Assembly (NCBI RefSeq): GCF_001552595.1
Contig: NZ_BCRM01000003.1
Location: 124,001 to 188,000, forward strand
Length of the DNA: 64,000 nt
Direction: 5' to 3'
From: Rhodococcus erythropolis NBRC 15567
GTDB taxonomy: Bacteria > Actinomycetota > Actinomycetes > Mycobacteriales > Mycobacteriaceae
This document shows, one piece after another, positions 7,016 to 34,366 of this stretch (position 1 is the first letter of the stretch; each line of letters begins with the position of its first letter). Under the pieces are notes generated by a model, which saw only the letters and a program-made list of their open reading frames with translations, searched no databases and was not told the origin of the DNA. A program made the position numbers and the translations under genes.

Positions 7016-7029
7016 TGTAACACGTTCTA
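7016..7029. promoter_or_regulatory. KstR-type operator, cyp125 side
   Basis: TGTAACACGTTCTA, with AAC-AC-GTT core and near-perfect dyad symmetry, 55 bp upstream of the cyp125 start. It is the closer of two KstR-like sites to cyp125 in the divergent promoter region. Confidence 0.8.
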
Positions 7030-7039
7030 CTCTCATTGA

Positions 7040-8299
<1,260 letters not shown>

Positions 8300-15637: not shown

Positions 15638-16804
15638 GTGTTGACCACAGACGTGACGACCACAACGGACCTCGGCGAAGTCGACGAGATCCGCATGATC
15701 GACGAGGGCGCTGCGCCCGAACGTTTTGCCCGCGGATGGCACTGCCTCGGACTTGCAACGGATTTCCACGACGGGAACCCACATCCGATCGAGGCCTTCG
15801 GCACCAAGCTTGTCGTATTTGCCGACAGCCAGAGCGAATTGAAGGTCCTCGATGCCTACTGCCGTCACATGGGCGGCGACCTCAGTCAGGGCACGGTCAA
15901 GGGCGATTCAGTCGCCTGCCCCTTCCACGACTGGCGTTGGGGCGGCAACGGCAAATGCACCGCGATCCCCTATGCACGCCGCGTTCCACCGCTTGCCAAA
16001 ACCCGCGCCTGGACCACCCTCGAACAAGACGGACTGCTTTTCGTCTGGCATGACCCCGAAGGCAATCCGCCTCCGGCCGAAGTCGCCATACCGGTAATCA
16101 AAACTCCGGACCACGAATGGACCGATTGGGTATGGAAGTCAATCGTCATCGACACCAACTGTCGAGAAATCGTCGACAACGTCGTGGACATGGCGCACTT
16201 CTTCTACGTGCACTTTTCGTTTCCCACTTACTTCAAGAACGTCTTCGAGGGGCATGTCGCCATCCAGGAGCAGAGCGGTATCAACCGCGACGACATCGTG
16301 ACCTGGACGGATCCCGACGTGCCGCAGTTGGTCTCGAACTTCTCGGTGGCCGCCTATCACGGACCGTCGTTCATGATCGATGATCTGGTGTACCAGTACG
16401 AAACGTTCAAGGTGGATTCGGTTTTGATCAACTGCCACTATCCGGTCAGCCCGAACAAGTTTGTCCTGATGTACGGCATCACCGTCAAGAAGACCGAGGA
16501 ACTTCCCGCCGGGATAGCGGACCAAACCGTTGACGCGATGATCGGTTACATCGGCGTCGGATTCGAGCAGGACATCGAGATCTGGAAGAACAAGACCCGC
16601 ATCGACAACCCACTACTCTGCACCGAGGACGGTCCGGTCTACCAACTGAGGCGGTGGTACGAACAGTTCTACGTCGACGTCGCCGACGTCACGCCCGAGA
16701 TGATCGATCGCTTCGAATTCGAGATGGATACAAGCAAACCCATCGAGGTGTGGAAACAGGAGGTTGCAGACAACCTCGCACGCCGTGCAGGAGCAGCGCA
16801 GTGA
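15638..16804 (+). CDS. kshA: 3-ketosteroid 9alpha-hydroxylase oxygenase component KshA
   Basis: A 388-residue Rieske non-heme iron oxygenase. Rieske ligands are Cys75-x-His77 and Cys94-x2-His97 (CRHMGG, CPFHDWRW). The mononuclear iron site follows the pattern N181-D184-H187-H192 (DNVVDMAHFFYVHFSF). KshA with reductase KshB hydroxylates C9 of 3-ketosteroids such as AD/ADD or their CoA esters, leading to ring B opening. kshB is not in the window. Rhodococci carry several kshA paralogues, and which one this is cannot be decided. GTG 15638 was chosen (AAAGGA upstream); TTG 15641 is possible. Divergent from the IclR gene and coupled to a small CxxC gene. Confidence 0.88.
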   Translation: MLTTDVTTTTDLGEVDEIRMIDEGAAPERFARGWHCLGLATDFHDGNPHPIEAFGTKLVVFADSQSELKVLDAYCRHMGGDLSQGTVKGDSVACPFHDWRWGGNGKCTAIPYARRVPPLAKTRAWTTLEQDGLLFVWHDPEGNPPPAEVAIPVIKTPDHEWTDWVWKSIVIDTNCREIVDNVVDMAHFFYVHFSFPTYFKNVFEGHVAIQEQSGINRDDIVTWTDPDVPQLVSNFSVAAYHGPSFMIDDLVYQYETFKVDSVLINCHYPVSPNKFVLMYGITVKKTEELPAGIADQTVDAMIGYIGVGFEQDIEIWKNKTRIDNPLLCTEDGPVYQLRRWYEQFYVDVADVTPEMIDRFEFEMDTSKPIEVWKQEVADNLARRAGAAQ

Positions 16805-18330: not shown

Positions 18331-19605
18331 TCAGGGCGGCGGAGCCGGGCGGCCGAAGAGAACTGCTGACATGAACGTCTGAAGTGTGGAGGCGTTTTCT
18401 GCTGCAACATCGAACTTGATCAAGCGTCCGATGTCGGGGACCAGGTTCAAAGCAGCGTGAACCAGGAACTTCGCCTCTATCGCCGAAAGGTCCGGACGAA
18501 TTTCGCGAAGTATCCGCGCCCACTCGACCACGTACAGCTTCTGCCGATTCTTCAGATCGCTTCGATGTCCCGGCAGAAGGTTGTTCATCTCGGAAAAATA
18601 GACCGACATCAATTCATGTTGTGCAAACGACAACTCCACGTACATCGCCGACAGTGTGCGCAGCGCTTCCTCCGGCGACGTCGCAGACTCGAATACTGCT
18701 GCCGTCGCAAGGTCCAGACGGTCTGCCGCTCGATAGAACACCGCCCCGAGAAGTTCCGCTTTGCTCGGAAAGTAGCGGTACATCCCGGAAGCGTTCAAAC
18801 CCGCAGCGGCTGCGATCTCTTCGATACTGACGTCGTGGTAACCGCGAGAATCGAAGAGCCGCACGGCTTCCTGTAGCAGACGTTCACGCTTGTTCGTCGT
18901 CACCGGTCGCGTCGACACAGTTTGCTCCGACCGCCGCGATGTAATTGCACTCCCTCCATGTTCGATCGACAGACAAGCGTCGAGAAGAACTTGCTCCATC
19001 CGACGTTGGGGCAGTATCAGATTGTGAGCGGTGATGCTGCCGATCACGCTGAACATCGCTGAGGTGAGGATGGTTTCGGCACGAGTACTCGCCGGCGGTT
19101 CGGAGCGTGAAAGATGCAGTGCAACTCGGCGATTGACAGCAGCTGCCTGAGCTCGGACCGATTTCCGATCGGCAGCGTCGAGAAACCGACTCTCCCACCG
19201 GTAGATCCCGGCTGTGCGCCGATTACGCACCGTCGTTCGGATCACAGCGAGCAAATCCTCGCGTAGGCGCTCCCGGTCAGTTGCATCGGCGGCGACGGAG
19301 ACCGCATCGAGTGCACTCTCGAGCGCGTCGGTCAATTCCAGTGCCGCGTGGCGGAACATCGCATACTTGTTCGGAAAATGCCGATAGAGTGCCGAACCTG
19401 AAATACCAACGGACGACGCGATGTCCTCGACGCCTACGGCAGGATATCCCCGTTCACTGAACGCAATTGCAGCCGCAGCGGCGATCTTCGCCTTGCGGTC
19501 CTTCGGACGTCGCTTGACCGACTCCGATCCCGCCGCTCGAAGGATTACACGCGAGGTCTGTTCGTCAACTGTCTGCGCATCGACAGACTGCTGTCTCGGG
19601 CTCAC
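18331..19605 (-). CDS. Tandem TetR-family regulator (two TetR units in one chain)
   Basis: A 424-residue protein holding two TetR repressor units. The first HTH lies near residues 40-85 (KIAAAAAIAFSERGYPAVGV, then GISGSALYRHFPNKYAMF), the second near 236-285 (RLLQEAVRLFDSRGYHDVSI, then AAGLNASGMYRYFPSKAELL). Each is followed by a helical ligand-binding region. TetR proteins are about 200 residues and dimerise; a fused pair could act as an intrachain dimer or bridge two operators. GTG 19605 has GAGAGGGG upstream. It is divergent from mce4, with two ACCGGT palindromes 36-53 bp before its start and two 27-bp repeats nearer to yrbE4A. Confidence 0.85.
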   Translation of the reverse strand: MSPRQQSVDAQTVDEQTSRVILRAAGSESVKRRPKDRKAKIAAAAAIAFSERGYPAVGVEDIASSVGISGSALYRHFPNKYAMFRHAALELTDALESALDAVSVAADATDRERLREDLLAVIRTTVRNRRTAGIYRWESRFLDAADRKSVRAQAAAVNRRVALHLSRSEPPASTRAETILTSAMFSVIGSITAHNLILPQRRMEQVLLDACLSIEHGGSAITSRRSEQTVSTRPVTTNKRERLLQEAVRLFDSRGYHDVSIEEIAAAAGLNASGMYRYFPSKAELLGAVFYRAADRLDLATAAVFESATSPEEALRTLSAMYVELSFAQHELMSVYFSEMNNLLPGHRSDLKNRQKLYVVEWARILREIRPDLSAIEAKFLVHAALNLVPDIGRLIKFDVAAENASTLQTFMSAVLFGRPAPPP

Positions 19606-19640
19606 TCGTGCACCCCTCTCTCTCAGCCTCGCTCAGCCCT

Positions 19641-19658
19641 ACCGGTCACCAAACCGGT
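19641..19658. promoter_or_regulatory. Paired ACCGGT palindromes upstream of the tandem TetR gene
   Basis: ACCGGT occurs at 19641-19646 and again at 19653-19658, 12 bp apart (about one helical turn), 36-53 bp before the TetR start. A plausible autoregulatory operator; no experimental consensus was matched. Confidence 0.45.
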
Positions 19659-19808
19659 CCTTTTGCGAATGAGCATAATCATAATCTGTGCACGCCATCG
19701 GAAACTTTCGAGATTTCCACTGTATCAATGTTCCATATACGCTGCTAGCTGCCCTAACTCCAGGTTGCCATCAACTGCATCGCCCCGATCATCGATGCTG
19801 AAACTCGA

Positions 19809-19835
19809 GAGAATTCTCGTTAACAAAGCCTTGCC
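19809..19835 (+). repeat. Upstream copy of 27-bp mce4-promoter repeat
   Basis: Starts with the perfect palindrome GAGAATTCTC, continues GTTAACAAA and ends CTTGCC. It aligns with 20011-20038 with one gap and five to six mismatches, on the same strand, 202 bp apart. The terminal TTGCCC could act as a -35 element with TAGGGT 17-18 bp downstream. Confidence 0.6.
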
Positions 19836-20010
19836 CTGTGGTCGAAACTAGGGGTAGGGTCACCGCTCGAAGCGGCCCCTCCCTCCCCGATCGGGACATC
19901 GGACGACGGCTTCCGGAATTTCGATGAACTTAAGCCGAGGACGCCACCCGACAGAACTCATATTGGCACGTCAACGCACTCACCGTCGCTGTTACACCAA
20001 AAATTCCCCC

Positions 20011-20038
20011 GAGAATTTTCGTTCACATAATGCTTGCC
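20011..20038 (+). repeat. Downstream copy of 27-bp mce4-promoter repeat
   Basis: GAGAATTTTCGTTCACATAA followed by TGCTTGCC. It matches the 19809-19835 copy and lies 111 bp before yrbE4A, immediately upstream of the CRP-type palindrome. The GAGAATTTTC core is a slightly decayed form of the GAGAATTCTC palindrome. Confidence 0.6.
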
Positions 20039-20052
20039 ACGTCACATATATG

Positions 20053-20068
20053 TGTGAGATGCTTCACA
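20053..20068. promoter_or_regulatory. Perfect CRP/GlxR-type site upstream of mce4
   Basis: TGTGA-GATGCT-TCACA matches the CRP/GlxR consensus TGTGA-N6-TCACA at all ten specified positions. It is centred 88 bp before the yrbE4A start and partly overlaps the CACATATATGTG palindrome. Control of the importer by a cAMP-CRP-type regulator is inferred. Confidence 0.75.
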
Positions 20069-20148
20069 AGCAGTTCGCTCGACCGCCAGCGTCCGAACAG
20101 TTCGACTTTCGTGCTGAACCATGTTGATCTGCAAAGGAATTCAATTAG

Positions 20149-20958
20149 ATGACGTACGAGCTACCAGCCCCGAAAGGCCCGGTACGAGACGTAGCGTTGC
20201 AGGGGGGCTATCTGATCGGATTCTCGGTGCAGGCACTGTTCGGCCTGTTCACGGCAATCCTCCGCAGGCGACTCTCGTTGCACGAGACGATCACTCAGAC
20301 GCTCTTCATCGGTCGCGTCAGCACTGGTCCGTCGCTGCTCCTCATGATTCCGATCGGCGTCTTCATCGCGGTGTCGGTCGGCGAACTGGCCGGCCGCATC
20401 GGTGCCGGTGGCTACTCGGGCGCCGTCGTGGCATTCATCATCGTCGGACAGGCCGCAGCACTGGTGTGCGCGTTGATGATGGCCGGTGTTGCCGGGTCGG
20501 CGATCTGCACCGATCTTGGTTCGCGAAAGATTCGCGAAGAGATCGATGCCATGGAAGTGATGGGCATCGATGTGATCGAACGCTTGGTAGCTCCGAGATT
20601 GGTTGCGGCAGTGATCGTCTCCCTCGCACTGTGCTCGATGGTGACCTTCGGCGGAGTGATCGCGTGCTATCTGTACCACATCTACGTGCAGCATCTTCCG
20701 GCCGGAACGTTCATGGCAACGTTCAGCCAATACGGTCGATCGTCCGACTTCGTCATGGCTTTGGTGAAAGCCGCGATCTTCGGCCTCGCTTCGACTTTGG
20801 TGGCCACTTTCAAAGGTCTCCATGCAAAAGGCGGCCCCCGCGGCGTTGCCGACGCAGTCAACGAGGCCGTCGTCATTGCGTTCGCGCTCGTCTTCATCGT
20901 GAACACAGTGTTGTCCGCGTTGTACACCGTAATCGTCCCGGCGGTCGGTGAATTCTGA
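20149..20958 (+). CDS. yrbE4A: Mce4 transporter permease YrbE4A (MlaE family)
   Basis: A 269-residue integral membrane protein of the MlaE/YrbE permease family, with about five to six hydrophobic segments (for example LLLMIPIGVFIAVSVGELAG and SGAVVAFIIVGQAAALVCALMM). The conserved amphipathic loop EEIDAMEVMGIDVIERLVAPR (about residues 127-147) is where the ATPase Mkl/MceG would dock. With YrbE4B it forms the channel of the Mce4 sterol importer. ATG 20149 has AAAGGA about 10 nt upstream. It heads the mce4 operon and ends in a TGATG overlap with yrbE4B. The ATPase gene is not in the window. Confidence 0.93.
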   Translation: MTYELPAPKGPVRDVALQGGYLIGFSVQALFGLFTAILRRRLSLHETITQTLFIGRVSTGPSLLLMIPIGVFIAVSVGELAGRIGAGGYSGAVVAFIIVGQAAALVCALMMAGVAGSAICTDLGSRKIREEIDAMEVMGIDVIERLVAPRLVAAVIVSLALCSMVTFGGVIACYLYHIYVQHLPAGTFMATFSQYGRSSDFVMALVKAAIFGLASTLVATFKGLHAKGGPRGVADAVNEAVVIAFALVFIVNTVLSALYTVIVPAVGEF

Positions 20959-21815
20959 TGTCGCTCGTCGATCTCCGTGTTCGAGCCCGTCAAGCGAGCA
21001 GACCCCTGCGAACCGCCGGCGACGGCCTCGTCTCCCTCGGTCAGCACGTCACTTTCTACGTCCGCACCATCGCATCGATCCCTTTTGCGCTCACCAAGTA
21101 CCGCAAGCACGTACTCGGTCAGATCAGCGAGGTCAGCTTCGGCACGAACTCCTTGCTGTCCGGCGGCGGCACCATCGGGATCGTCTTCGCGATGTCGCTC
21201 GCCGCGGCAATGATGTTGGGCGTCGAGACTCACCGGGGCCTCGAACTCGTCGGGATGACCTCGCTCTCGGGCATGCTGTCTGCGGTCGCGAACACCCGTG
21301 AGCTTGCCCCTGTTGTCGTCGCTATCGCGTTGGCCGCCAAGGTCGGAACGGGTTTCACTGCCCAGATCGGGGCTATGCGCATCTCGGACGAGATCGACGC
21401 CCTCGACTCGATGGCGATCAGATCCATCCCCTTCCTCGCGGGTACGCGGGTGATCGCTGCCATGATCTGCGTCATCCCGATCTACATGATCGGACTGCTC
21501 GCCAGCTACCTGTCGACCCGACTGGTCGTCGTGTTCTTCAACGGTGCATCGGCAGGTACTTACGACTACTTCTTCCATCTGGCGATCTCGCCGCAGGATC
21601 TCCTGTACTCGGGCCTCAAGGCCGTGGTGTTCGCCGCTGTTGTCGCGCTGGTTCACTGCGCGTACGGCTACTATGCCTCCGGTGGTCCGGCCGGCGTCGG
21701 GCAGGCTGCCGGGCGCGCTCTTCGGACTGCGATCCTCGCGATCGGAATCCTCGACGTACTGATGACTTTCGCGCTGTGGGGCCTCGTGCCCCAGATCCCG
21801 GGAATGGGGGTCTGA
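20958..21815 (+). CDS. yrbE4B: Mce4 transporter permease YrbE4B
   Basis: A 285-residue MlaE-family permease paralogous to YrbE4A. It has an N-terminal amphipathic section, then several membrane segments (for example ELAPVVVAIALAAKVGTGFT) and the docking loop DEIDALDSMAIRSIPFLAGTR (about 144-164). ATG 20958 overlaps the yrbE4A stop by one base, so the two permease subunits are translationally coupled. The gene ends 3 bp before mce4A. Expected in the cytoplasmic membrane as half of the sterol-import permease. Confidence 0.93.
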   Translation: MSLVDLRVRARQASRPLRTAGDGLVSLGQHVTFYVRTIASIPFALTKYRKHVLGQISEVSFGTNSLLSGGGTIGIVFAMSLAAAMMLGVETHRGLELVGMTSLSGMLSAVANTRELAPVVVAIALAAKVGTGFTAQIGAMRISDEIDALDSMAIRSIPFLAGTRVIAAMICVIPIYMIGLLASYLSTRLVVVFFNGASAGTYDYFFHLAISPQDLLYSGLKAVVFAAVVALVHCAYGYYASGGPAGVGQAAGRALRTAILAIGILDVLMTFALWGLVPQIPGMGV

Positions 21816-21818
21816 GCC

Positions 21819-23042
21819 GTGGACAGACTCACTACACACACAAAGATCGTGTACGCCCTTCGCGGCGCGATCGCCGTAGTGGTAGCCGTCGCCGCCGCTG
21901 TCACAATGGTTCTACGCGGTTCGGGAAACCTCGAGCAGAGCACCGATATCTTCGTCGCTGTTCCAGCCACAGCCGGTCTCATCAGCGGTGAAGCTCCGGT
22001 TCGGTACCACGGCGTCAACGTCGGCCGAATCGGCGAAATCGAATCAGGCACCGCCGAATCCGTTGTGCAGTTGCAGATTCAGACCGATGACGCGTCGAAG
22101 ATTCCCGCCGACGTGGTGGCCCGCGTCGTTCCGCGCACGTTCTTCGGCGACATCTACATGCAGCTCGTGGACAGTCCGAATGAGCAGGGCCAGACGACTC
22201 TGTCGGACGGAGACGAGATCCACATGGACGACGGTCCCGAAGCCGTTGCGCTCTACGACGTGTACACCAAATTGGTGGGAGTCCTCACGGCGATGCAGCC
22301 CGAGAAGTTGCAGACAGCCCTGACTGCGCTGGGCCAGGCACTCGACGGAAACGGAGCCGAGATCGGTACCACGATAGACAATCTCAGTGCCGCGTCCGGC
22401 GTACTGACACCCGCCGCACACCAATTCCTCGAATCGACACCCGAATTCAAGTCGGTCGTCGACGCGTTGGACCGCGCGACCCCCGACATTCTCGATACCT
22501 TGGCAGCCGCCACAACCGTCTCGAACAACATGGTCGCCAACAGAGCGAATCTCGAGTCCTCGATCGGCGCGGCCGCAGTCTTCGCCGCTACCGTCGACGA
22601 TTTTGTCGTGGAGAACAACCGAAACATCATCACTGTGATCGATTCCGCCGGAAAGATACTCGCAACCACCGCGGCCAATCCCGGAGGACTGCGTTCCACC
22701 CTCGCCAATGCCAGTACGTTCGGCGCCGCGGGCGCGCGGGTCTTCGCCACCGGTAAGTTCGACATCACAGCAGTTGCCACGTTCGCCGAACCGCTCCCAT
22801 ACACGGGCGATGATTGCCCGCAGTACGGGGACTCGCGCGGCGCGCAGTGTTCAGGCTCCAACCTGACGCCTGCACAACCCGTCAGTGCCCCGGTCGTGGG
22901 CGGCGAAGCCGAAGCGGCCACGCTGCGCTACCTCGAAGATCAGCTACTGGGCGGATCGCCGGAACGCTCGGACACCCCCAACCCGGCAACAACACTGATG
23001 TTGGGGCCGATGGTCAGAGGCAATGAGGTGACCGTCCCGTGA
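21819..23042 (+). CDS. mce4A: Mce4A sterol-import protein
   Basis: A 407-residue MCE-family protein. One N-terminal membrane helix or uncleaved signal (about 9-32, IVYALRGAIAVVVAVAAAV), then the MCE domain (about 40-120: FVAVPATAGLISGEAPVRYHG, then NVGRIGEI), a long helical region and a cysteine-bearing tail. Mce4A-F form a hetero-oligomeric tube that carries cholesterol from the mycomembrane to the permease. The GTG start at 21819 follows the yrbE4B stop by 3 bp, and the stop overlaps mce4B. The C-terminal tail is longer than in most subunits (CPQYGDSRGAQCSGSNLTP). Confidence 0.93.
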   Translation: MDRLTTHTKIVYALRGAIAVVVAVAAAVTMVLRGSGNLEQSTDIFVAVPATAGLISGEAPVRYHGVNVGRIGEIESGTAESVVQLQIQTDDASKIPADVVARVVPRTFFGDIYMQLVDSPNEQGQTTLSDGDEIHMDDGPEAVALYDVYTKLVGVLTAMQPEKLQTALTALGQALDGNGAEIGTTIDNLSAASGVLTPAAHQFLESTPEFKSVVDALDRATPDILDTLAAATTVSNNMVANRANLESSIGAAAVFAATVDDFVVENNRNIITVIDSAGKILATTAANPGGLRSTLANASTFGAAGARVFATGKFDITAVATFAEPLPYTGDDCPQYGDSRGAQCSGSNLTPAQPVSAPVVGGEAEAATLRYLEDQLLGGSPERSDTPNPATTLMLGPMVRGNEVTVP

Positions 23043-24070
23043 AGGTCCGTCCTGGCCAGGTAATTCGGTTGTCACTCTTCTGTCTCACCGGCGTCGCTTG
23101 TGCGTCGTTCGTGGCGAACACGTTGTCGGTCCCGGTTCGCGGAAGCACCGATTCGTATTCGTTCGAGTTCACCGATGTCGAAGGCCTCAACCCGGGTAAC
23201 CCGGTCACGATGTCCGGTGTGCGTATCGGCCGCGTGGACTCGGTTGCGTTTGCCGACAACGGCGGCGGCACGAGCAAGGCGATCGTCGACGTCGAAATCG
23301 AGTCGCAATATTCCCTCGAGTCGGATGTCCGTGCCGCCGTGCGCTACGGCGACATGCTCGGTGCTCGATATCTGGCACTGACGCAGGACGACAGCGCGAC
23401 AACGGTATCCGCAAGACAGCTCGAACCAGGTGACACGATACCGCTGGCGCAGACAACACCGCCGATCAACTTGACGGCACTGATGAACGGGTTCAAACCG
23501 TTGTTCGCCGCGCTGCAACCCGAGCAGGTGAACACGCTCACGCGAAGTTTTGTCGAAACCTTCAACGGCCAGGGCCAGGCGATGACCACCCTCCTCGACC
23601 AGATCGCGACCATGAGCTCCGGCCTTGTCGACCGTCAGGACGTCTTCGCACAACTACTCACGAACATGAACACTCTTCTCACCTCCGTCGACGAACGCCA
23701 ACCCGAATTGGTCGGTCTGCTGGACGGTTTGAACGATCTGAGTACTTCCGTCGTCGGGCAGAACGATCAACTGGTCTCGCTCTTGGATCAGGGAAACCGA
23801 ACTGTCTCGTCGTTGGCTCAGATCATGGCCGGGTCGAACGGCGCATTCGGTCAGACCGTGCAACAACTCGAAAGTGTCACCGGGAGTTGGATTGCGAGCA
23901 CCGACGAGTTCAACAGACTTCTCGCCAACCTTCCCCAGTTCGCCGACGCCGCCAACCGGATCGGAAGTTACGGAAGTTTCATCAGCCTGTATCTGTGCAA
24001 TTTCACTCTGAAGGCAGGCGACATGGAAGCCAACATCTTCGGTCCGACACATTCGCCGGTGTGCTCATGA
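23039..24070 (+). CDS. mce4B: Mce4B sterol-import protein
   Basis: A 343-residue MCE protein with N-terminal hydrophobic anchor (VIRLSLFCLTGVACASFVAN), an MCE domain (about 35-115: FTDVEGLNPGNPVTMSGVRIG) and a helical region rich in Gln/Asn heptads (LLDQIATM, LLDGLNDLS). The short tail ends NIFGPTHSPVCS. The GTG start at 23039 overlaps the mce4A stop by 4 bp, and its stop overlaps the mce4C start. It is part of the periplasmic sterol conduit. Confidence 0.92.
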   Translation: MKVRPGQVIRLSLFCLTGVACASFVANTLSVPVRGSTDSYSFEFTDVEGLNPGNPVTMSGVRIGRVDSVAFADNGGGTSKAIVDVEIESQYSLESDVRAAVRYGDMLGARYLALTQDDSATTVSARQLEPGDTIPLAQTTPPINLTALMNGFKPLFAALQPEQVNTLTRSFVETFNGQGQAMTTLLDQIATMSSGLVDRQDVFAQLLTNMNTLLTSVDERQPELVGLLDGLNDLSTSVVGQNDQLVSLLDQGNRTVSSLAQIMAGSNGAFGQTVQQLESVTGSWIASTDEFNRLLANLPQFADAANRIGSYGSFISLYLCNFTLKAGDMEANIFGPTHSPVCS

Positions 24071-25125
24071 TGTTCCTGGTCAAGCTGATCGACGTGTTCG
24101 TCGGCATCATGCTCTTCCTGTTCAAAGGGGATCGCCGTCGCAGCGGTAGCGGCACCGCTCTCGCCCTGGGTAGTCTCGGAATCTTCGTTCTGGTGGTGGG
24201 ACTCGGCGCCGCCTTGGGCATTCCGAAGCTCTGGTACAACGTACGCACGTCGGCATACACAGCGGAGTTGGCCAATGCCAGCGGGCTTTCCGACACCGAT
24301 CCGGTTTACGTGGCCGGGGTTCCCGCGGGCCGAGTGGATTCGATCGACCTTGCCGGCGACCACGTCGTCGTCAACTTCCGCTTGGACAAGGACCAGCCTT
24401 TGGGAAACCAGAGCACGGCGACTGTCAGGCTCAAGACGGTCCTTGGCAAGCGCTACCTGGAGATCGTGCCGGCCGGAGTGGTCGACGACTCCGATGCGCG
24501 GGTCATCCCGCTCTCCCGCACAACCGTGCCGTACAGCCTCGACGACGTCAGCAGTGATGCCACCACTGCGGCCACCGGGATCGACCTACAGGCGATGGAG
24601 TCCATGATGAACACCCTTTCGCAGGTGATTCCAACTGATTCCGATCAGGTGGGCCGGGCTCTGGCCGGAATCAGCGGCGCCTCGGCGGCTTTCGCGCAGA
24701 ACAGTGAACAGATCGACCAGATTCTCATCATGTCCCGCGAGCTGTCGGACATGGCTGCGGCACAAACCGATTCGATAGTCGGTACTGCGGCCAATGCTCA
24801 GACGATCGTTCGTACTCTTGCGATGCGCAAGGACGCACTGACTCAGTTGGTCGACAACCTGACAATCATCATCTCGAAGCTCTCCACCACTTTCGTCGAT
24901 CGTCAGGACGAGTTCGGAGCCATGACCGACAACCTCGTCGAGGTCACCACCACGCTGAAGAACAACGCAGATCAGATCGACCTGCTGTTGACTCGTCTTC
25001 CTTCCGCGCTGCGTTCGGTCACCGATTCCACCGGCACCGGCAATTGGACCGACGTCAACGCGCCGGCCGCCGTGATCCCGGACAATCTGCTCTGCGCGCT
25101 CGGCATCATGGAGGGCTGCAAGTGA
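24067..25125 (+). CDS. mce4C: Mce4C sterol-import protein
   Basis: A 352-residue MCE protein. The N terminus is basic and strongly hydrophobic (MMFLVKLIDVFVGIMLFLFK, then a second helix GSLGIFVLVVGLGAALGIP), giving a possible two-segment anchor. The MCE domain covers about 60-140 (ANASGLSDTDPVYVAGVPAG), followed by coiled regions. ATG 24067 overlaps the mce4B stop; the ORF extension to 23887 lies inside mce4B and is rejected. The stop overlaps the GTG of mce4D. Confidence 0.92.
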   Translation: MMFLVKLIDVFVGIMLFLFKGDRRRSGSGTALALGSLGIFVLVVGLGAALGIPKLWYNVRTSAYTAELANASGLSDTDPVYVAGVPAGRVDSIDLAGDHVVVNFRLDKDQPLGNQSTATVRLKTVLGKRYLEIVPAGVVDDSDARVIPLSRTTVPYSLDDVSSDATTAATGIDLQAMESMMNTLSQVIPTDSDQVGRALAGISGASAAFAQNSEQIDQILIMSRELSDMAAAQTDSIVGTAANAQTIVRTLAMRKDALTQLVDNLTIIISKLSTTFVDRQDEFGAMTDNLVEVTTTLKNNADQIDLLLTRLPSALRSVTDSTGTGNWTDVNAPAAVIPDNLLCALGIMEGCK

Positions 25126-26219
25126 ATACACGAAAAGCCGTCACGGCCATGCTGGTCGTGACCCTGGCGATTGCACTCCCCGGTTGGTACATCTTCGGAC
25201 GAACGGATCAGTCCAAGACCGTCTACGCCGATTTCAGCTACGTCGGCGGAATCTACGAGGGAAGCAAGGTCACCGTCCTCGGAGTCGGCGTCGGGACGGT
25301 CACGTCGGTGGAACCTCGCGGAACTTCTGTTCGAGTAGCGATGTCGATGCCCAACTCCGTGGACCTGCCCGCCGACGCCTCGGCCTATGTCCTTAATCCA
25401 TCGGTGATCAGCGATCGCCACATCGAACTCGGCCCGGCTTACACCGGCGGAGAGACGCTGAAAGACGGCGACCAGATTCCGATCGAACGTGCCCACTCCC
25501 CCATAGATTTCGACGGCTTGATGGGAAGCGTCAGCACTTTGGCCGACGCATTTGCCGGGGATGGGGGCAATCTCGGCGATCTCGTGAGCCGCGGCGCTGC
25601 CGGATGGCAGGGTCAGGGCGATCAATTCAACACCGCAATTCGCAACCTCAGCACGGCAACCGGAGTTGTCGGCGCTCGGTCGGAAGACATCGGTGCCCTT
25701 GTCGACAATCTCAACACCTTGATGAATGCTCTGGACGCACGGCAGGTCAGCCTCGACGAACTTGTCGGTGACCTCGGCACATTGGGCGATCAGTGGGCGA
25801 ACCAGAGCATGGACATCTCACAGCCTCTGCAGGATCTGCAGGTGGTCTTCGACCAGTTGAACAGTTTCATGACAACTCACGGCGATGATGTCGGTGCCAT
25901 AGCCGACAACGTGCGAGTTCTCGGTGACACTCTGGCTGCCAAAGAACCCGGCCTCGCCGAGTTCATGGACCTGGTGCCGTTGATGATGCAGAACCTCTCC
26001 CAGACAATCGGTCCTGATCAGCGCGGGCGCATTCGGCTCAACGTCTCGACTGCATTGACTCAGTTCGCGGTTGCGAAACCGCTGTGCGACACCTACAAGT
26101 TGCCGATCTGTACCGGAGCCGGGTTCACGAATCCGATTTCCTTCCCCCTCAGCACTTCTGATCCGCTCGGAATCGCCTCCGCGATTTCCGGCGGAGCCGT
26201 CCCCGGAGGTGGCAATTGA
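25122..26219 (+). CDS. mce4D: Mce4D sterol-import protein
   Basis: A 365-residue MCE protein. N-terminal membrane helix VTAMLVVTLAIALPGWYIFG (about 7-26), MCE domain about 35-115 (FSYVGGIYEGSKVTVLGVGV), then long helices (LSTATGVVGARSEDIGALVD). The M. tuberculosis counterpart is often longer with a proline-rich tail, which is absent here. The GTG start at 25122 overlaps the mce4C stop by 4 bp. Role as for the other Mce4 subunits. Confidence 0.92.
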   Translation: MNTRKAVTAMLVVTLAIALPGWYIFGRTDQSKTVYADFSYVGGIYEGSKVTVLGVGVGTVTSVEPRGTSVRVAMSMPNSVDLPADASAYVLNPSVISDRHIELGPAYTGGETLKDGDQIPIERAHSPIDFDGLMGSVSTLADAFAGDGGNLGDLVSRGAAGWQGQGDQFNTAIRNLSTATGVVGARSEDIGALVDNLNTLMNALDARQVSLDELVGDLGTLGDQWANQSMDISQPLQDLQVVFDQLNSFMTTHGDDVGAIADNVRVLGDTLAAKEPGLAEFMDLVPLMMQNLSQTIGPDQRGRIRLNVSTALTQFAVAKPLCDTYKLPICTGAGFTNPISFPLSTSDPLGIASAISGGAVPGGGN

Positions 26220-27280
26220 CGCGGCAATCGGTTCGAATAGTCGCCGGTATCGTGATCATCGGTGTGGGTTCTGCGGCCGTGTTCGCCTTCGGCGGCTGTA
26301 GCGCAGGCATTCAAGACCTACCCCTGGGTCGTTCGGCCGACGGTGATGCGTACAACGTGGCGCTGCAGCTGGCCGGCGCCGACGGCCTGGTGTTGGGGGC
26401 AGACGTCCGCAGCGGCCAGAAAGTCATCGGTCGAGTATCCGCGCTGTCCGCCGACGTCGTCGGAGCCGATGTGACACTGAGTCTGGACGCCGCGACGCCG
26501 TTGCCGGACAACGTCGAAGCATCCGTCGAACTCCCGTCCGCACTGGGCAACCCGTTCATCAGACTATTGGTGCCGGAGGTTCCGTCCGGCTCGATGCTCA
26601 GCGACGGCGACACAATTCCGGAGTCTCGCACCGAGATCGGTCCGCAAGTCGAAAGTGCGCTTGCCACGCTCGGTACGGTTCTGACCGGAAGCGGCATCGA
26701 TCAACTCGATACCGTGGTGCGCGAGCTGAACACCGCGTTTTCCGGGCGCTCCGGTGAAGTTCGTTCTCTGACCGACACCCTGACCTCGCTCATGGCAGAG
26801 GCAAGCAGTCACCGCAGCGAGTTCGACGAGGCCGTCGACCTCGCTGCCCGGGTCTCCTCCCAACTGGCCGGCCAACGCGACGTCGTCGACAACTACCTCG
26901 ATTCCGTTCCACAGGTGGTGTCGATTCTCGTGGGACAGAAGGATCAGATTGCAGGCCTGTTGAACTCGACCGTTCAGCTCGCCACCAACGCAAACACCAT
27001 CCTCGACTCGTCACCCGACGGCCTCGACGCGATGCTGCACGATGCGTCGACCGTTGTCGGGACTCTGGATTCGTTCAATTCGGAGATCGGTCAGACACTG
27101 GCGAATATGAACGGACTGCTCGAGAACTTCACCAGTGCAGTCCAAGGTGACTACCTCGTTTTCGACGGCGCCCTGGATATTCCGGGAACGATCGACAAGC
27201 TCTGGAGCGGCGGGATGGCCGGTCAATCGATCGCACCGGCGGGAACTCTCACCGATCTACTTCAGGGAGGTCTGCGTTGA
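26216..27280 (+). CDS. mce4E: Mce4E lipoprotein (LprN-like)
   Basis: A 354-residue MCE protein with a lipoprotein signal: hydrophobic helix IVAGIVIIGVGSAAVFAFGG and lipobox FGGC with acylated Cys28. The MCE domain covers about 45-125 (GADGLVLGADVRSGQKVIG). The E subunit of mce operons is characteristically the lipoprotein (LprN in M. tuberculosis mce4), anchoring the complex to the membrane. Unusually it uses a TTG start at 26216, overlapping the mce4D stop (TTGA). Confidence 0.92.
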   Translation: MTRQSVRIVAGIVIIGVGSAAVFAFGGCSAGIQDLPLGRSADGDAYNVALQLAGADGLVLGADVRSGQKVIGRVSALSADVVGADVTLSLDAATPLPDNVEASVELPSALGNPFIRLLVPEVPSGSMLSDGDTIPESRTEIGPQVESALATLGTVLTGSGIDQLDTVVRELNTAFSGRSGEVRSLTDTLTSLMAEASSHRSEFDEAVDLAARVSSQLAGQRDVVDNYLDSVPQVVSILVGQKDQIAGLLNSTVQLATNANTILDSSPDGLDAMLHDASTVVGTLDSFNSEIGQTLANMNGLLENFTSAVQGDYLVFDGALDIPGTIDKLWSGGMAGQSIAPAGTLTDLLQGGLR

Positions 27281-28497
27281 GTCGCCTTGCGCTTGTTCAA
27301 CTTGTCCTGTTCGCTCTGATCGCTGCTGTGGTAATCCCTTTCGGAATCGTCTACGTGGTCGGCCCTCAGGGTTTCGGTGGCCAAATCCGGCTGCACGCCA
27401 ACATGTCCGACGCCTTCGGGCTGACCAAGGGCACGGTCGTCACGTATCGCGGCGTACAGGTGGGGAAAGTGAGTGAAGTCGAACTCGACGCAGGCACCCG
27501 CTCGGCTCGGGTGGAACTCTCACTCAACGACAACGCCGAGATACCTACCGACAGCGTCGCCAAGGTGACGATGGGGACCGCAGCCGGAATTCAGAATGTC
27601 GACATCTATCCCAACACAGACCACGGCCCGTATCTTCGGGACGGCGACGAAATCGCCATGCCCGCGGATCAGCAACCGGTCCAGATGAGCCAGTTGATGC
27701 TTCAGGCGTCCGGTGTCCTGGAAGGGATTGATCCGCAAGCGATCAGCGACATCGGGACCGAACTGGGAAATTCGTTCAACGGGCTCGGCCCGAGCTTGGC
27801 GACGATGATCGACAACGGTGGGACCATGTCCGCGCAGTTGAACGACCAGTCGACCGAACTCGCCGCGCTGCTGTCGCGAACCTCCACGTTGGTGGACTCC
27901 ATGGCGACACAATCGGATTCGTTAGTCCGAGGAATGGCAGCTGCCAAGAACTTCACCGAACAACTCGAATCCAACGCTCCGGTGCTGATCTACCTCACCG
28001 ATCATTCGCCCGCCGCCCTGAACAGCGCTCAACAGTTGTTCGACAAGTACCACAACACTTTCGGAGCGGTCCTGGCCAATCTCGTCACTGTCGCACCGAT
28101 CATCTCCGACCGCACAGACGCCCTCGAAACCGGACTTGTCACGATTCCTGAAGGTCTCGCCAAACTGGCATCCATCGTCAAAGGCGATCGCGCCGACTTT
28201 GCCTTGGTTGCCACACAGGGGCCGGTCTGTAACTACGACACCCCTAGGCGTGAGGTCGGCGATCTGTCTCCCACCAGTCCAAGTCTGGCGATGTACTGTC
28301 CCCCCTCCGACGACCTCGTCCAACGCGGAGCACAGAATGCTCCCCGCCCGAACGACCTCGGATTGCAGAACTCGACGGTCCCCGGTACGCCGATCGGACC
28401 GCCCGTCGTCGCAGATCCGATTCTCGTCCCGACCGGAGTCGAAGCCCTGAACTACTGGAGATTGATGTTGGAAGGACTGGGAAATGGCACACGGTGA
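27277..28497 (+). CDS. mce4F: Mce4F sterol-import protein
   Basis: A 406-residue MCE protein with N-terminal helix LALVQLVLFALIAAVVIPFGIVYVVG read in two parts (about 3-28), MCE domain about 38-118 (NMSDAFGLTKGTVVTYRGVQ), then helical and proline-rich sections (CPPSDDLVQRGAQNAPRPND). It starts with TTG at 27277 in a TTGA overlap with mce4E. Its end overlaps the following mas gene by 14 bp. Completes the mce4A-F set. Confidence 0.92.
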   Translation: MSRLALVQLVLFALIAAVVIPFGIVYVVGPQGFGGQIRLHANMSDAFGLTKGTVVTYRGVQVGKVSEVELDAGTRSARVELSLNDNAEIPTDSVAKVTMGTAAGIQNVDIYPNTDHGPYLRDGDEIAMPADQQPVQMSQLMLQASGVLEGIDPQAISDIGTELGNSFNGLGPSLATMIDNGGTMSAQLNDQSTELAALLSRTSTLVDSMATQSDSLVRGMAAAKNFTEQLESNAPVLIYLTDHSPAALNSAQQLFDKYHNTFGAVLANLVTVAPIISDRTDALETGLVTIPEGLAKLASIVKGDRADFALVATQGPVCNYDTPRREVGDLSPTSPSLAMYCPPSDDLVQRGAQNAPRPNDLGLQNSTVPGTPIGPPVVADPILVPTGVEALNYWRLMLEGLGNGTR

Positions 28498-29041
28498 CAA
28501 CGCACTACTCGACGAGGCTGAAGCCGAGGTGGCCGAACATCCGACTTCTCCGTCGCTACTTCGCCGCCTCAAGGAGCCACGCAACGCACTGATCTCACTC
28601 ATAGCGGTAGCGCTGGTCGCAGCATTGGTGGTGCTCGGATTCCAGATGTACTCGGCGAATCAGGAAGACACGCTGCGGCAGGAGGCTTTGGACACCGCGC
28701 GGGATTACTCGACCATCATGTCCTCCTTCGACTATCAGAACCTCGATGCCAACAAAGACAGCATCGCCTCGATGTCGACCGACGAGTTTGCCGGCACCTA
28801 CCGAACGATGGTCGATTCACTGCGCGAAGTCGTCGCCGGGGGGCAAGGCCAGGCGAGCGCAACGGCGACAGACGTCGGCATCGAATCGCTGGACAATTCG
28901 TCGGCCAAGGTGCTCGTGTTCGTCGACCAACAAGCCAAGAATGTCGCAGCGCCAGAGGGAAACACACAGAAGTACCGCATGGTCGTGTCCCTGGTCCGCT
29001 CGGACGACCGGTGGCTCGTGAGCAACGTCGAGACCAAGTAA
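28484..29041 (+). CDS. mas4A: Mce-associated membrane protein (Mas/Mam4)
   Basis: A 185-residue protein with a short cytosolic N terminus, one membrane helix (LISLIAVALVAALVVLGFQM, about 35-54) and a periplasmic domain resembling the NTF2-like domain of Mce-associated proteins (TARDYSTIMSSFDYQN, then SSAKVLVFVDQQAKN and RMVVSLVRSDDRWLVSNVE). Mas/Mam proteins stabilise Mce complexes. ATG 28484 lies 14 bp inside the end of mce4F. M. tuberculosis has two such genes after mce4F; only one is present here. Confidence 0.87.
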   Translation: MAHGDNALLDEAEAEVAEHPTSPSLLRRLKEPRNALISLIAVALVAALVVLGFQMYSANQEDTLRQEALDTARDYSTIMSSFDYQNLDANKDSIASMSTDEFAGTYRTMVDSLREVVAGGQGQASATATDVGIESLDNSSAKVLVFVDQQAKNVAAPEGNTQKYRMVVSLVRSDDRWLVSNVETK

Positions 29042-29065: not shown

Positions 29066-29971
29066 ATGCCCACTCACTACCTGGATTCGGAAAAGTCCGA
29101 GTCGTCTCTTCGGACCGATCAGACACGCATCACCATCACGGCGGAGCGTAGGCGGTGGGCACGTAAACCCGCACACATCACCGACGCACTCGATTTCTGG
29201 TCGTTCGCCGGAGCCGCTGCCAACGTCATCCTGCAACTCGGTTGGCCCGAGGTGGCGTACGGCGTCATGGAGAGCAAGGTCGAATCTGGTGCTCTGACAG
29301 CGCATCCGTGGAAGCGCGCACGAACCACAACGCAGTACCTGACGGTCGCGATCCTGGGCAACGAGGAAGAGCGAAAGGCCTACCGCGAGGCTGTGAATTC
29401 GGTACACCGACATGTGAAGTCGGATGCGAACAGCCCGGTCAAGTACAACGCCTTCAATCGCGAACTCCAATTATGGGTTGCTGCTTGCCTGTTCATCGGT
29501 TTCGAAGACAGTCATCAGTTGTTGCACGGCAAGATGTCGGAAGAACAGGCGGAGTCGTTCTATCAGTCCGCATCAACTTTGGGAACGACACTGCAGGTCA
29601 CCGAAGAGATGTGGCCGGCCACACGCGCAGACTTCGAGCGCTACTGGAACCTCGGTTGCGAACGCGTCGTCATCGACGAACGCACCAAGCAGTATCTGAT
29701 CGACCTGGTCAATCTACAGATGATCGCTTGGCCGATACGCTTGGTGTTCCGAAACTTGTTGCGGTTCCTGACGGTCGGATTCCTTCCACCGGTCTACCGC
29801 GACCAACTCGACCTCGAGTGGACCGAAGACGACCGCCGCCGGTTCGAACACCTCTTCATTTTCGTGTCGTTCGTCAACAGGTTCATTCCACGCTCCGTTC
29901 GTCAGGCCGGCAACACCATTCAGATGCGCGACATCCGTCGTCGGATCAAGGCGAGCAAGAATCTCGTCTGA
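29066..29971 (+). CDS. MpaB/latex-clearing-like oxygenase-family protein (DUF2236)
   Basis: A 301-residue helical protein of the DUF2236 family (MpaB/Lcp-like; several members are heme b proteins). Landmarks: AHITDALDFWSFAGAAANVILQ read in parts, HPWKRARTTTQYLTVAILG, and FNRELQLWVAACLFIGFEDS about residue 130-149. The His in LTAHPWKR and the basic Arg-Thr-Thr segment are typical; a heme ligand cannot be fixed by eye. ATG 29066 has GGAGGA 7 nt upstream, 24 bp after mas4A on the same strand, so it probably belongs to the mce4 operon. An oxidoreductase role on sterol or lipid cargo is speculation. Confidence 0.75.
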   Translation: MPTHYLDSEKSESSLRTDQTRITITAERRRWARKPAHITDALDFWSFAGAAANVILQLGWPEVAYGVMESKVESGALTAHPWKRARTTTQYLTVAILGNEEERKAYREAVNSVHRHVKSDANSPVKYNAFNRELQLWVAACLFIGFEDSHQLLHGKMSEEQAESFYQSASTLGTTLQVTEEMWPATRADFERYWNLGCERVVIDERTKQYLIDLVNLQMIAWPIRLVFRNLLRFLTVGFLPPVYRDQLDLEWTEDDRRRFEHLFIFVSFVNRFIPRSVRQAGNTIQMRDIRRRIKASKNLV

Positions 29972-33487: not shown

Positions 33488-34366
33488 ATGGACTCTGCAC
33501 TCACCTCCGTCGGCCTACCCGCCGCACTCGCCATCATCATGTTCGGCCTCGGGCTTTCCCTGACGGTCGGAGATTTCGCCCGCGTGGCAAAAGCGCCGAA
33601 GGCCGTTTCGATCGCCCTGATCTGTCAGTTGTTGTTGCTCCCGGCCGCGGCCTTCGGATTGGTCACGTTGTTCGACCTCGACCCACTGCTCGCGGTCGGC
33701 ATGATGCTCCTCGCCGCATCACCGGGCGGCACGACGGCAAACCTGTTCAGCCATCTGTTCCGCGGCGATGTTGCTCTCAATGTGACACTGACTGCGGTCA
33801 ATTCGGTGATAGCGGTGGTCACTCTCCCCCTGATCACCAACTTCGCGTTGGGTTACTTCGAACCCGAGGACGCGGACGGCACTCTCGGGCTTCAGTTCAC
33901 GAAGGTGCTCCAGGTCTTTGCCGTCGTATTGATTCCTGTCGCCCTCGGAATGTGGGTTCGGTTGCGCTCGAGCGCCTTTGCCGAGCGGATGGACAAGCCC
34001 GTCCGCATCGGATCCGCGGTGGTTCTGGCACTGGTGATCGTCGGAACGGTTGTTTCCGAGCGCGAGAACATCGCGGACTATCTCGTCGACATCGGCGTCG
34101 TCGCTGCCTTGTTCTGCCTACTGAGCCTATCGATCGGTTACGTCGTTCCCCGGATATTCGGCATCGAGGATCGTCAGGCAATCGCCAGTTCCATGGAAAT
34201 CGGCATCCACAACAGCACGTTGGCGATCACCATCGCCGTCAGTCTCCTCGGCAACGTGCAATTGGCAGTGCCGGCTGCGGTGTACGGCGTTCTCATGTTC
34301 CCGCTCGCCGCTGCCTTCGGCGCAACGATCACCCGCAAGTCACGGACAATGGCCGAAATCGACTAA
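33488..34366 (+). CDS. Bile acid:sodium symporter (BASS/SBF) family transporter
   Basis: A 292-residue integral membrane protein with about nine to ten hydrophobic helices. Family landmarks: MFGLGLSLTVGDFARVAKAP, MMLLAASPGGTTANLFSHLF (a sodium-site region with SPGG) and SSMEIGIHNSTLAITIAVSL (the EIGIQN-type motif). BASS proteins move bile acids or other organic anions with Na+. A link to the steroid theme is attractive but unproven, because the family also carries pantoate and other acids. ATG 33488 is the first codon after the last stop; the ribosome site is weak. Monocistronic by context. Confidence 0.85.
   Translation: MDSALTSVGLPAALAIIMFGLGLSLTVGDFARVAKAPKAVSIALICQLLLLPAAAFGLVTLFDLDPLLAVGMMLLAASPGGTTANLFSHLFRGDVALNVTLTAVNSVIAVVTLPLITNFALGYFEPEDADGTLGLQFTKVLQVFAVVLIPVALGMWVRLRSSAFAERMDKPVRIGSAVVLALVIVGTVVSERENIADYLVDIGVVAALFCLLSLSIGYVVPRIFGIEDRQAIASSMEIGIHNSTLAITIAVSLLGNVQLAVPAAVYGVLMFPLAAAFGATITRKSRTMAEID

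What the first reader, a model, noticed from the sequence alone, without database searches (positions are those of the whole stretch)
20053..20068. Perfect CRP/GlxR palindrome in front of the mce4 sterol-import operon
TGTGA-N6-TCACA matches all ten consensus positions, 88 bp (centre) before yrbE4A, in a promoter region where no canonical KstR palindrome was found. mce4 of mycobacteria and RHA1 is known for KstR control; cAMP-CRP control of sterol import would tie uptake to energy or carbon state.
Basis: partly seen in the sequence, partly recalled or inferred. Interest (0 to 1): 0.72.

Follow-up and report, generated by a model that had tools for sequence, protein, structure and literature searches.

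The report
Likely CRP site at lipid importer
A perfect cAMP-receptor (CRP) DNA site lies on the start region of a lipid-import (mce) operon in a Rhodococcus and is conserved in relatives, but the operon is not the cholesterol importer mce4 that it was taken for.

Summary
TGTGAGATGCTTCACA is at 20053-20068, a perfect CRP consensus centred 88 bp before the first permease gene. The label is wrong: the true mce4 lies about 47 kb upstream on the same contig, with the best Mce4A match, a FadD17-like neighbour and a KstR site. The window operon groups with neither mce4 nor mce3. It is divergent from a double-TetR regulator whose best solved match is Mce3R; that regulator's putative operator lies just upstream.

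The dyad spans the predicted -10. With N6 spacing it recurs in three promoter settings: beside the operator in two classes, and in Gordonia without the operator there, where 8 of 14 loci match with at most one mismatch against at most 4 of 14 in 209 controls. The genome encodes a close relative of M. tuberculosis CRP. CRP is published at the start of yrbE1A (mce1), which rises in the crp mutant.

Best reading: CRP-cAMP represses this operon. No binding was tested.

The parts
20053..20068 (+). TGTGA-N6-TCACA dyad, proposed CRP (GlxR-type) operator
   Evidence: conservation
20034..20039 (+). TTGCCA, inferred -35
   Evidence: position read; TTGC conserved in class I promoters; not listed by the consensus scan
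20058..20063 (+). GATGCT, inferred -10, inside the dyad, 18 nt from the -35
   Evidence: class I columns 6-11
20011..20031 (+). GAGAATTTTCGTTCACATAAT, putative operator of the double-TetR regulator (proximal copy)
19809..19825 (+). GAGAATTCTCGTTAACA, second (distal) copy of the operator; TTGCCC 19831-19836 and TAGGGT 19855-19860 could form another promoter behind it
18331..19605 (-). Double-TetR regulator, Mce3R-like
20149..20958 (+). First MlaE/YrbE-type permease gene
20958..21815 (+). Second MlaE/YrbE-type permease gene
21819..23042 (+). MceA-type gene (407 aa)
23039..24070 (+). Second Mce-family gene
24068..28497 (+). Further long ORFs of the operon, Mce genes by position (not searched by family here)
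   Evidence: ORFs only
28484..29041 (+). Rv0361-type membrane protein domain, weak match below the cut-off; probable Mce-associated protein
29066..29971 (+). MpaB/Lcp-type oxygenase-domain gene, kept behind this operon in many relatives

Best explanation
The palindrome is an operator for the genome's CRP (GlxR-type) protein, laid over the -10 and start region of an mce lipid-import operon that is not mce4. RNA polymerase uses TTGCCA-18-GATGCT (inferred). A double-TetR repressor of the Mce3R kind binds the GAGAATnnnnGTTCAC box just upstream of the -35 and senses a substrate-derived ligand (inferred from Mce3R). CRP-cAMP binds the dyad and competes with polymerase (inferred from its position and from the published rule for M. 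tuberculosis CRP). The importer would then open only when its own inducer is present and the cAMP signal permits. Shown here: the site, the conserved dyad, that the operon is not mce4, the regulator class, and the presence of CRP. Inferred: binding, repression, the start site, the ligand.
For: Site confirmed. Not mce4. Class I promoters (30 loci): arms and -10 kept, flanks not; 24 of 30 with at most one mismatch. Class II promoters (22 loci, before an upstream acyl-CoA ligase gene): the -10 is in another register (columns 3-8), yet the right arm is TCACA in 20 of 21 distinct sequences and CCACA in one. Gordonia (g9, 14 loci; operator in the last 400 bp in 0 of 14): 8 of 14 with at most one mismatch and unrelated spacers; 209 control arm/spacer combinations mean 0.05, maximum 4. 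N6 gives the most matches in all four sets tried. CRP gene: 458 bits to M. tuberculosis CRP 3d0s, recognition region identical in the printed alignment. Precedent: CRP site at +3.5 of yrbE1A, expression up in the crp mutant (PMC4117774, section 16).
Against: No binding or expression data for any of these promoters. Exact consensus is often not kept: L027 is TATGA-N6-TCACT, L038, L039 and L053 have 2-3 mismatches, L041 has lost the dyad at that place. Of 100 relatives 42 lack an operator-plus-dyad pair: all 14 g4, all 10 g6, all 14 g9, 2 of 6 g22, 1 of 5 g14, 1 of 1 g28; some operator copies have no dyad. Part of the left-arm and spacer conservation is due to the promoter itself. Class I and II rows were chosen because they hold an operator with a dyad of at most 3 mismatches (L041 class I was placed by offset), so their match counts are not unbiased. 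In class I, N8 also matches 5 of 15 loci with at most one mismatch. In the published table mkl has a site at -0.5 but falls in the crp mutant, so the repression rule has exceptions.
Confidence: 0.6

Rival explanations
1. Promoter by-product: the conserved block is an extended -10 (TGA-GATGCT) plus start-site sequence, and its match to CRP is fortuitous.
For: The N6 spacer is itself conserved (nAnGCT) in class I, and TGA falls where an extended -10 would lie. The mycobacterial class I loci have CCACA, not TCACA.
Against: The right arm lies downstream of the -10 and is kept in class II, where the -10 is in another register. In Gordonia the dyad lies beyond the apparent -10 with unrelated spacers. 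N6 is the best spacing in four sets.
Confidence: 0.2
2. The dyad is a second contact site of the double-TetR regulator, as Mce3R has two sites upstream of yrbE3A.
For: Mce3R binds two asymmetric 25-bp sites in the mce3 promoter (PMC11667970, passages). Operator and dyad lie 41-45 nt apart, start to start, in classes I and II.
Against: The dyad is symmetric and unlike the operator box. Gordonia loci keep the dyad without an operator in the last 400 bp. The mce4 promoter has a similar dyad next to a KstR site. Other operator copies lack the dyad.
Confidence: 0.12
3. Another CRP/FNR-family protein, not the CRP/GlxR orthologue, uses the site.
For: Six HTH_Crp_2 matches pass the family cut-off in this genome.
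Against: One match stands far above the rest (66.4 bits against 31.7 for the next) and it is the M. tuberculosis CRP-like protein, whose published consensus is this dyad.
Confidence: 0.08

Closest known systems
M. tuberculosis CRP (Rv3676) at yrbE1A, first gene of mce1
   Same: CRP site at the start of an mce operon; +3.5 from the TSS, expression up in the crp mutant in both conditions (PMC4117774 Table 2)
   Different: Another mce operon in another genus; here the site is inferred from sequence only
mce3 operon with Mce3R of M. tuberculosis
   Same: Divergent double-TetR regulator; asymmetric operator boxes, one about 100 bp before the start codon there, 122-138 bp here
   Different: Permease 37-40% identical to those near true Mce3R genes, which are 54-57% identical to the mce4 permease; regulator about 30% identical
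mce4 operon under KstR
   Same: mce architecture; the true mce4 also has a CRP-like dyad over the -10
   Different: The window operon has no KstR site and a different MceA
GlxR of corynebacteria (recalled)
   Same: CRP-family global regulator with the same kind of consensus (recalled)
   Different: GlxR sites were not compared here

Membership tests
CRP/GlxR operator | TGTGA-N6-TCACA consensus | tested here: met
   consensus as printed in PMC4117774
CRP/GlxR operator | Cognate CRP encoded in the genome | tested here: met
CRP/GlxR operator | Dyad conserved with fixed spacing beyond controls | tested here: met
   with controls; selected rows; missing in 42 of 100 relatives as an operator-dyad pair
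CRP/GlxR operator | Bound by CRP; expression depends on crp | not testable with these tools
   needs gel shift, ChIP or a crp deletion
mce4 (sterol import) | MceA closest to Mce4A among the five mce clusters of the genome | tested here: not met
   bits to 7ai2 Mce4A: window 24.3, C22 45.6, C3:96 kb 99.9, C12 35.6, C19 64.2
mce4 (sterol import) | FadD17-like and hsd4A-type neighbours and a KstR site | tested here: not met
   found at the C3:96 kb cluster, not at the window operon; gene order of M. tuberculosis is recalled
mce3 | Permease groups with mce3 of Mce3R-bearing genomes | tested here: not met
   40, 40 and 37% identity, against 45% to the C22 paralogue; mce3-type is 54-57% to mce4; pairwise identities in three genomes, no tree
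Mce3R-type double TetR | Two TetR domains in one chain, aligned end to end with Mce3R | tested here: met
   (residues 26-396 to 4-376 of 9b7y)
Mce3R orthologue | Best match to Mce3R in the genome | tested here: not met
   the best own match is another double TetR at C1:845542
KstR regulon | TnnAACnnGTTnnA in the promoter | tested here: not met
   none with at most one mismatch in 19606-20148; motif from PMC1995591

The most novel reading that the evidence does not exclude
CRP-cAMP directly represses the real cholesterol importer mce4, through a dyad (TATGA-N6-TCACA) laid over the -10 next to the KstR operator and kept in Rhodococcus relatives and, weaker, in mycobacteria; the same switch in consensus form controls a second mce operon. 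This would give a direct route for the unexplained failure of the KstR1 regulon to be induced when cAMP is raised in M. tuberculosis.
Probability: 0.3. Interest if true: 0.72.

Novelty: new member of a known kind. Interest (0 to 1): 0.5.

Why it matters
Raised cAMP is reported to prevent induction of the KstR1 regulon, yrbE4B included, by a route that is not identified (PMC8856561, passages). Conserved CRP-like dyads over the -10 of mce operons, the real mce4 among them, offer a testable route and would tie lipid import to the cell's cAMP state through one element used in several promoters. The work also corrects the operon label, so that tests meant for mce4 are not run on the wrong promoter.

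Tried and rejected
Rejected: operon = mce4; operon = mce3; C22 cluster = mce4 because the KstR gene is on that contig (my first guess, overturned). A general feature of KstR promoters as the source of the mce4 dyad: of 14 KstR-like sites in own sequence held, read in both directions, two have a dyad with at most one mismatch in the following 75 bases, mce4 and L116:17059.

Led nowhere: literature searches for mce4 with KstR and CRP, GlxR with Rhodococcus and cholesterol, and Rhodococcus with cAMP receptor protein, mce and GlxR gave nothing on point in their listings. The main text of the M. tuberculosis CRP ChIP paper does not contain Rv3501c, Rv3502c, yrbE4A, Rv3574 or Rv1964, which counts against mce4 binding in that species; its supplements could not be read here. 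The consensus promoter scan did not list the inferred promoter. The mce group of the window operon was not settled (listing only).

Full report
Observation. TGTGAGATGCTTCACA is at 20053-20068, the only perfect match in the window and one of ten in the 6.59-Mb genome, against 2.95 expected from base composition. In the 543-bp intergenic region 14 of 20,000 dinucleotide shuffles contain a perfect site. Of the other nine perfect sites, six (L164, L165, L167, L168, L170, L171) lie at or within about 120 bp upstream of the start of an ORF of at least 150 aa, two (L166, L172) overlap a long ORF, and L169 is unclear (my reading; ORF starts are mechanical). One of the genes is an acetate-CoA ligase (L167).

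What the operon is. The genome has five clusters with a related permease. Their MceA proteins score against the solved Mce4A (7ai2): window 24.3 bits, C22 45.6, C3:96 kb 99.9, C12 35.6, C19 64.2. The C3:96 kb cluster also has a FadD17-like ligase (641.7 bits, below that model's cut-off of 850) and an SDR gene in the hsd4A place (the name hsd4A and the M. tuberculosis gene order are recalled), and a KstR-type site 85-98 bp before its permease. That cluster is mce4. The window operon is about 47 kb away. Permeases near true Mce3R genes in three unnamed mycobacteria are 37-40% identical to the window permease but 54-57% identical to the mce4 one, so the window operon is not mce3. I did not assign it to a named Mce group.

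The local regulator. The divergent gene 18331-19605 has two TetR domains, and its best solved match is Mce3R over both halves (129 bits). It is not the Mce3R orthologue: another own protein is closer. Double TetRs are common: 278 of 401 family genomes have one at E at most 1e-30. In 47 of 83 relatives' loci a match to the window regulator (E at most 1e-20) lies upstream on the opposite strand within the flank held. It is missing in the other 36, which include the Gordonia loci and the M. fortuitum-type loci. The six mycobacterial genomes tested nevertheless have a 39-40% identical relative in the genome, and seven of 14 Gordonia genomes one of 39-43%, the other seven at best 29-37%. The box GAGAATnnnnGTTCAC starts 42 bp before the dyad, with a second copy at 19809. 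A box like it (GAGAAT-N4-GTTAAC, at most two mismatches) is in the regulator's own divergent intergenic region in 10 of 10 loci examined, which I chose; 200 permuted motifs gave a mean of 0.145 of 10 and a maximum of 2. It is the regulator's likely operator, by inference.

The dyad. In class I promoters (next to the permease gene; 30 loci, 29 distinct 42-mers) the arms are conserved, most flanking columns are not, and the spacer nAnGCT is conserved as a -10 would be. In class II (before an upstream ligase gene; 22 loci, 21 distinct) the sequence is TGTAA-N6-TCACA in most. The -10 TAnnnT lies at columns 3-8, and the right arm is TCACA in 20 of 21 and CCACA in one; 19 of 22 have one mismatch to the CRP consensus and 3 have two. 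Eight of 14 match with at most one mismatch and 11 of 14 with at most two. The 209 control combinations of permuted arms and spacers 3-9 give mean 0.05 and maximum 4, and mean 0.59 and maximum 6; the control with 4, GTGAT-N4, overlaps the same dyad. N6 gives the most matches in each of four sets (at most one mismatch): class I 11 of 15, Gordonia 8 of 14, class II 17 of 28, mce4 24 of 41. The next best is N8 in class I, 5 of 15. Of 100 relatives, an operator followed at 36-49 nt by a dyad of at most three mismatches is found in 58: g1 16 of 16, g10 11 of 11, g27 16 of 16, g29 6 of 6, g25 1 of 1, g14 4 of 5, g22 4 of 6, g28 0 of 1, g4 0 of 14, g6 0 of 10, g9 0 of 14. Related species are not independent, so these counts are not probabilities.

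Why CRP. The own protein at L173:985-1734 matches M. tuberculosis CRP with 458 bits, and the recognition region is identical in the printed alignment. That protein's published consensus is this dyad; sites close to the start go with repression, upstream sites with activation (PMC4117774, abstract, passages and section 16). Its Table 2 lists yrbE1A, first gene of mce1, with a site at +3.5 and higher expression in the crp mutant (log2 0.97 and 2.10). It also lists mkl with a site at -0.5 and lower expression, against the rule. The present site, centred near -9 by the inferred start, fits the repressing class.

The real mce4. Its promoter reads TTGACA, KstR site, TTAATATGACCTGAGTCACA. In 41 mce4 promoters 24 have a dyad with at most one mismatch and 31 with at most two. 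Controls give mean 0.11 and maximum 2 for the first, and mean 1.66 and maximum 23 for the second, so only the first count is telling. The left arm TATGA is partly the -10 itself. A dyad with at most two mismatches right after the KstR site is lacking in the g23, g16 and g9 loci, in the one g31 locus and in one of four g6 loci; the g9 and g31 loci have no KstR core either. Four of five g23 loci have a one-mismatch dyad 173-222 bp upstream instead. In 30 mycobacterial loci, paralogues included, 9 have TATGA-N6-TCACA with one mismatch and 13 with two, 3 have only an upstream AATGA-type dyad, and 5 have none (no control run). Wilburn and others report that raised cAMP prevents KstR1-regulon induction, yrbE4B included, with the route unknown, and that only nine predicted CRP genes changed in their data (PMC8856561, passages).

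Verdict.

Noticed in passing
L115:11006-11110 (own contig C3, about 97.0-97.1 kb; outside the window): True mce4 promoter: KstR site followed by a one-mismatch CRP-like dyad TATGACCTGAGTCACA over the -10, conserved in many relatives.
   Followed up: partly
20043-20054: CACATATATGTG, a perfect 12-bp palindrome between the inferred -35 and -10; many Gordonia promoters of the same operon carry TTTCATATATGAAA near their -10. Possible site of another regulator.
   Followed up: no
L112:7716-11110 (own contig C22): Second double-TetR regulator, 46% identical to the window one, with an operator-like box (4 mismatches) and TGTAGCCTGAGTCACA before an acyl-CoA ligase gene.
   Followed up: partly
381-394, 7016-7029 and 7093-7106: KstR-type palindromes near a ChsH2-domain gene and a steroid 3-ketoacyl-CoA thiolase gene: part of the window looks like a KstR-controlled sterol region.
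   Followed up: no
15638-16804: KshA-type Rieske oxygenase gene close to the regulator; a match was found in the held flank of only 2 of 83 relatives' loci, L024 and L025.
   Followed up: no
33488-34366: Sodium/bile-acid symporter family protein downstream of the mce operon.
   Followed up: no
L351, L352 (unnamed g6 genomes): The double-TetR matches show one TGA inside the aligned range; it may mark the end of the gene rather than a break.
   Followed up: no
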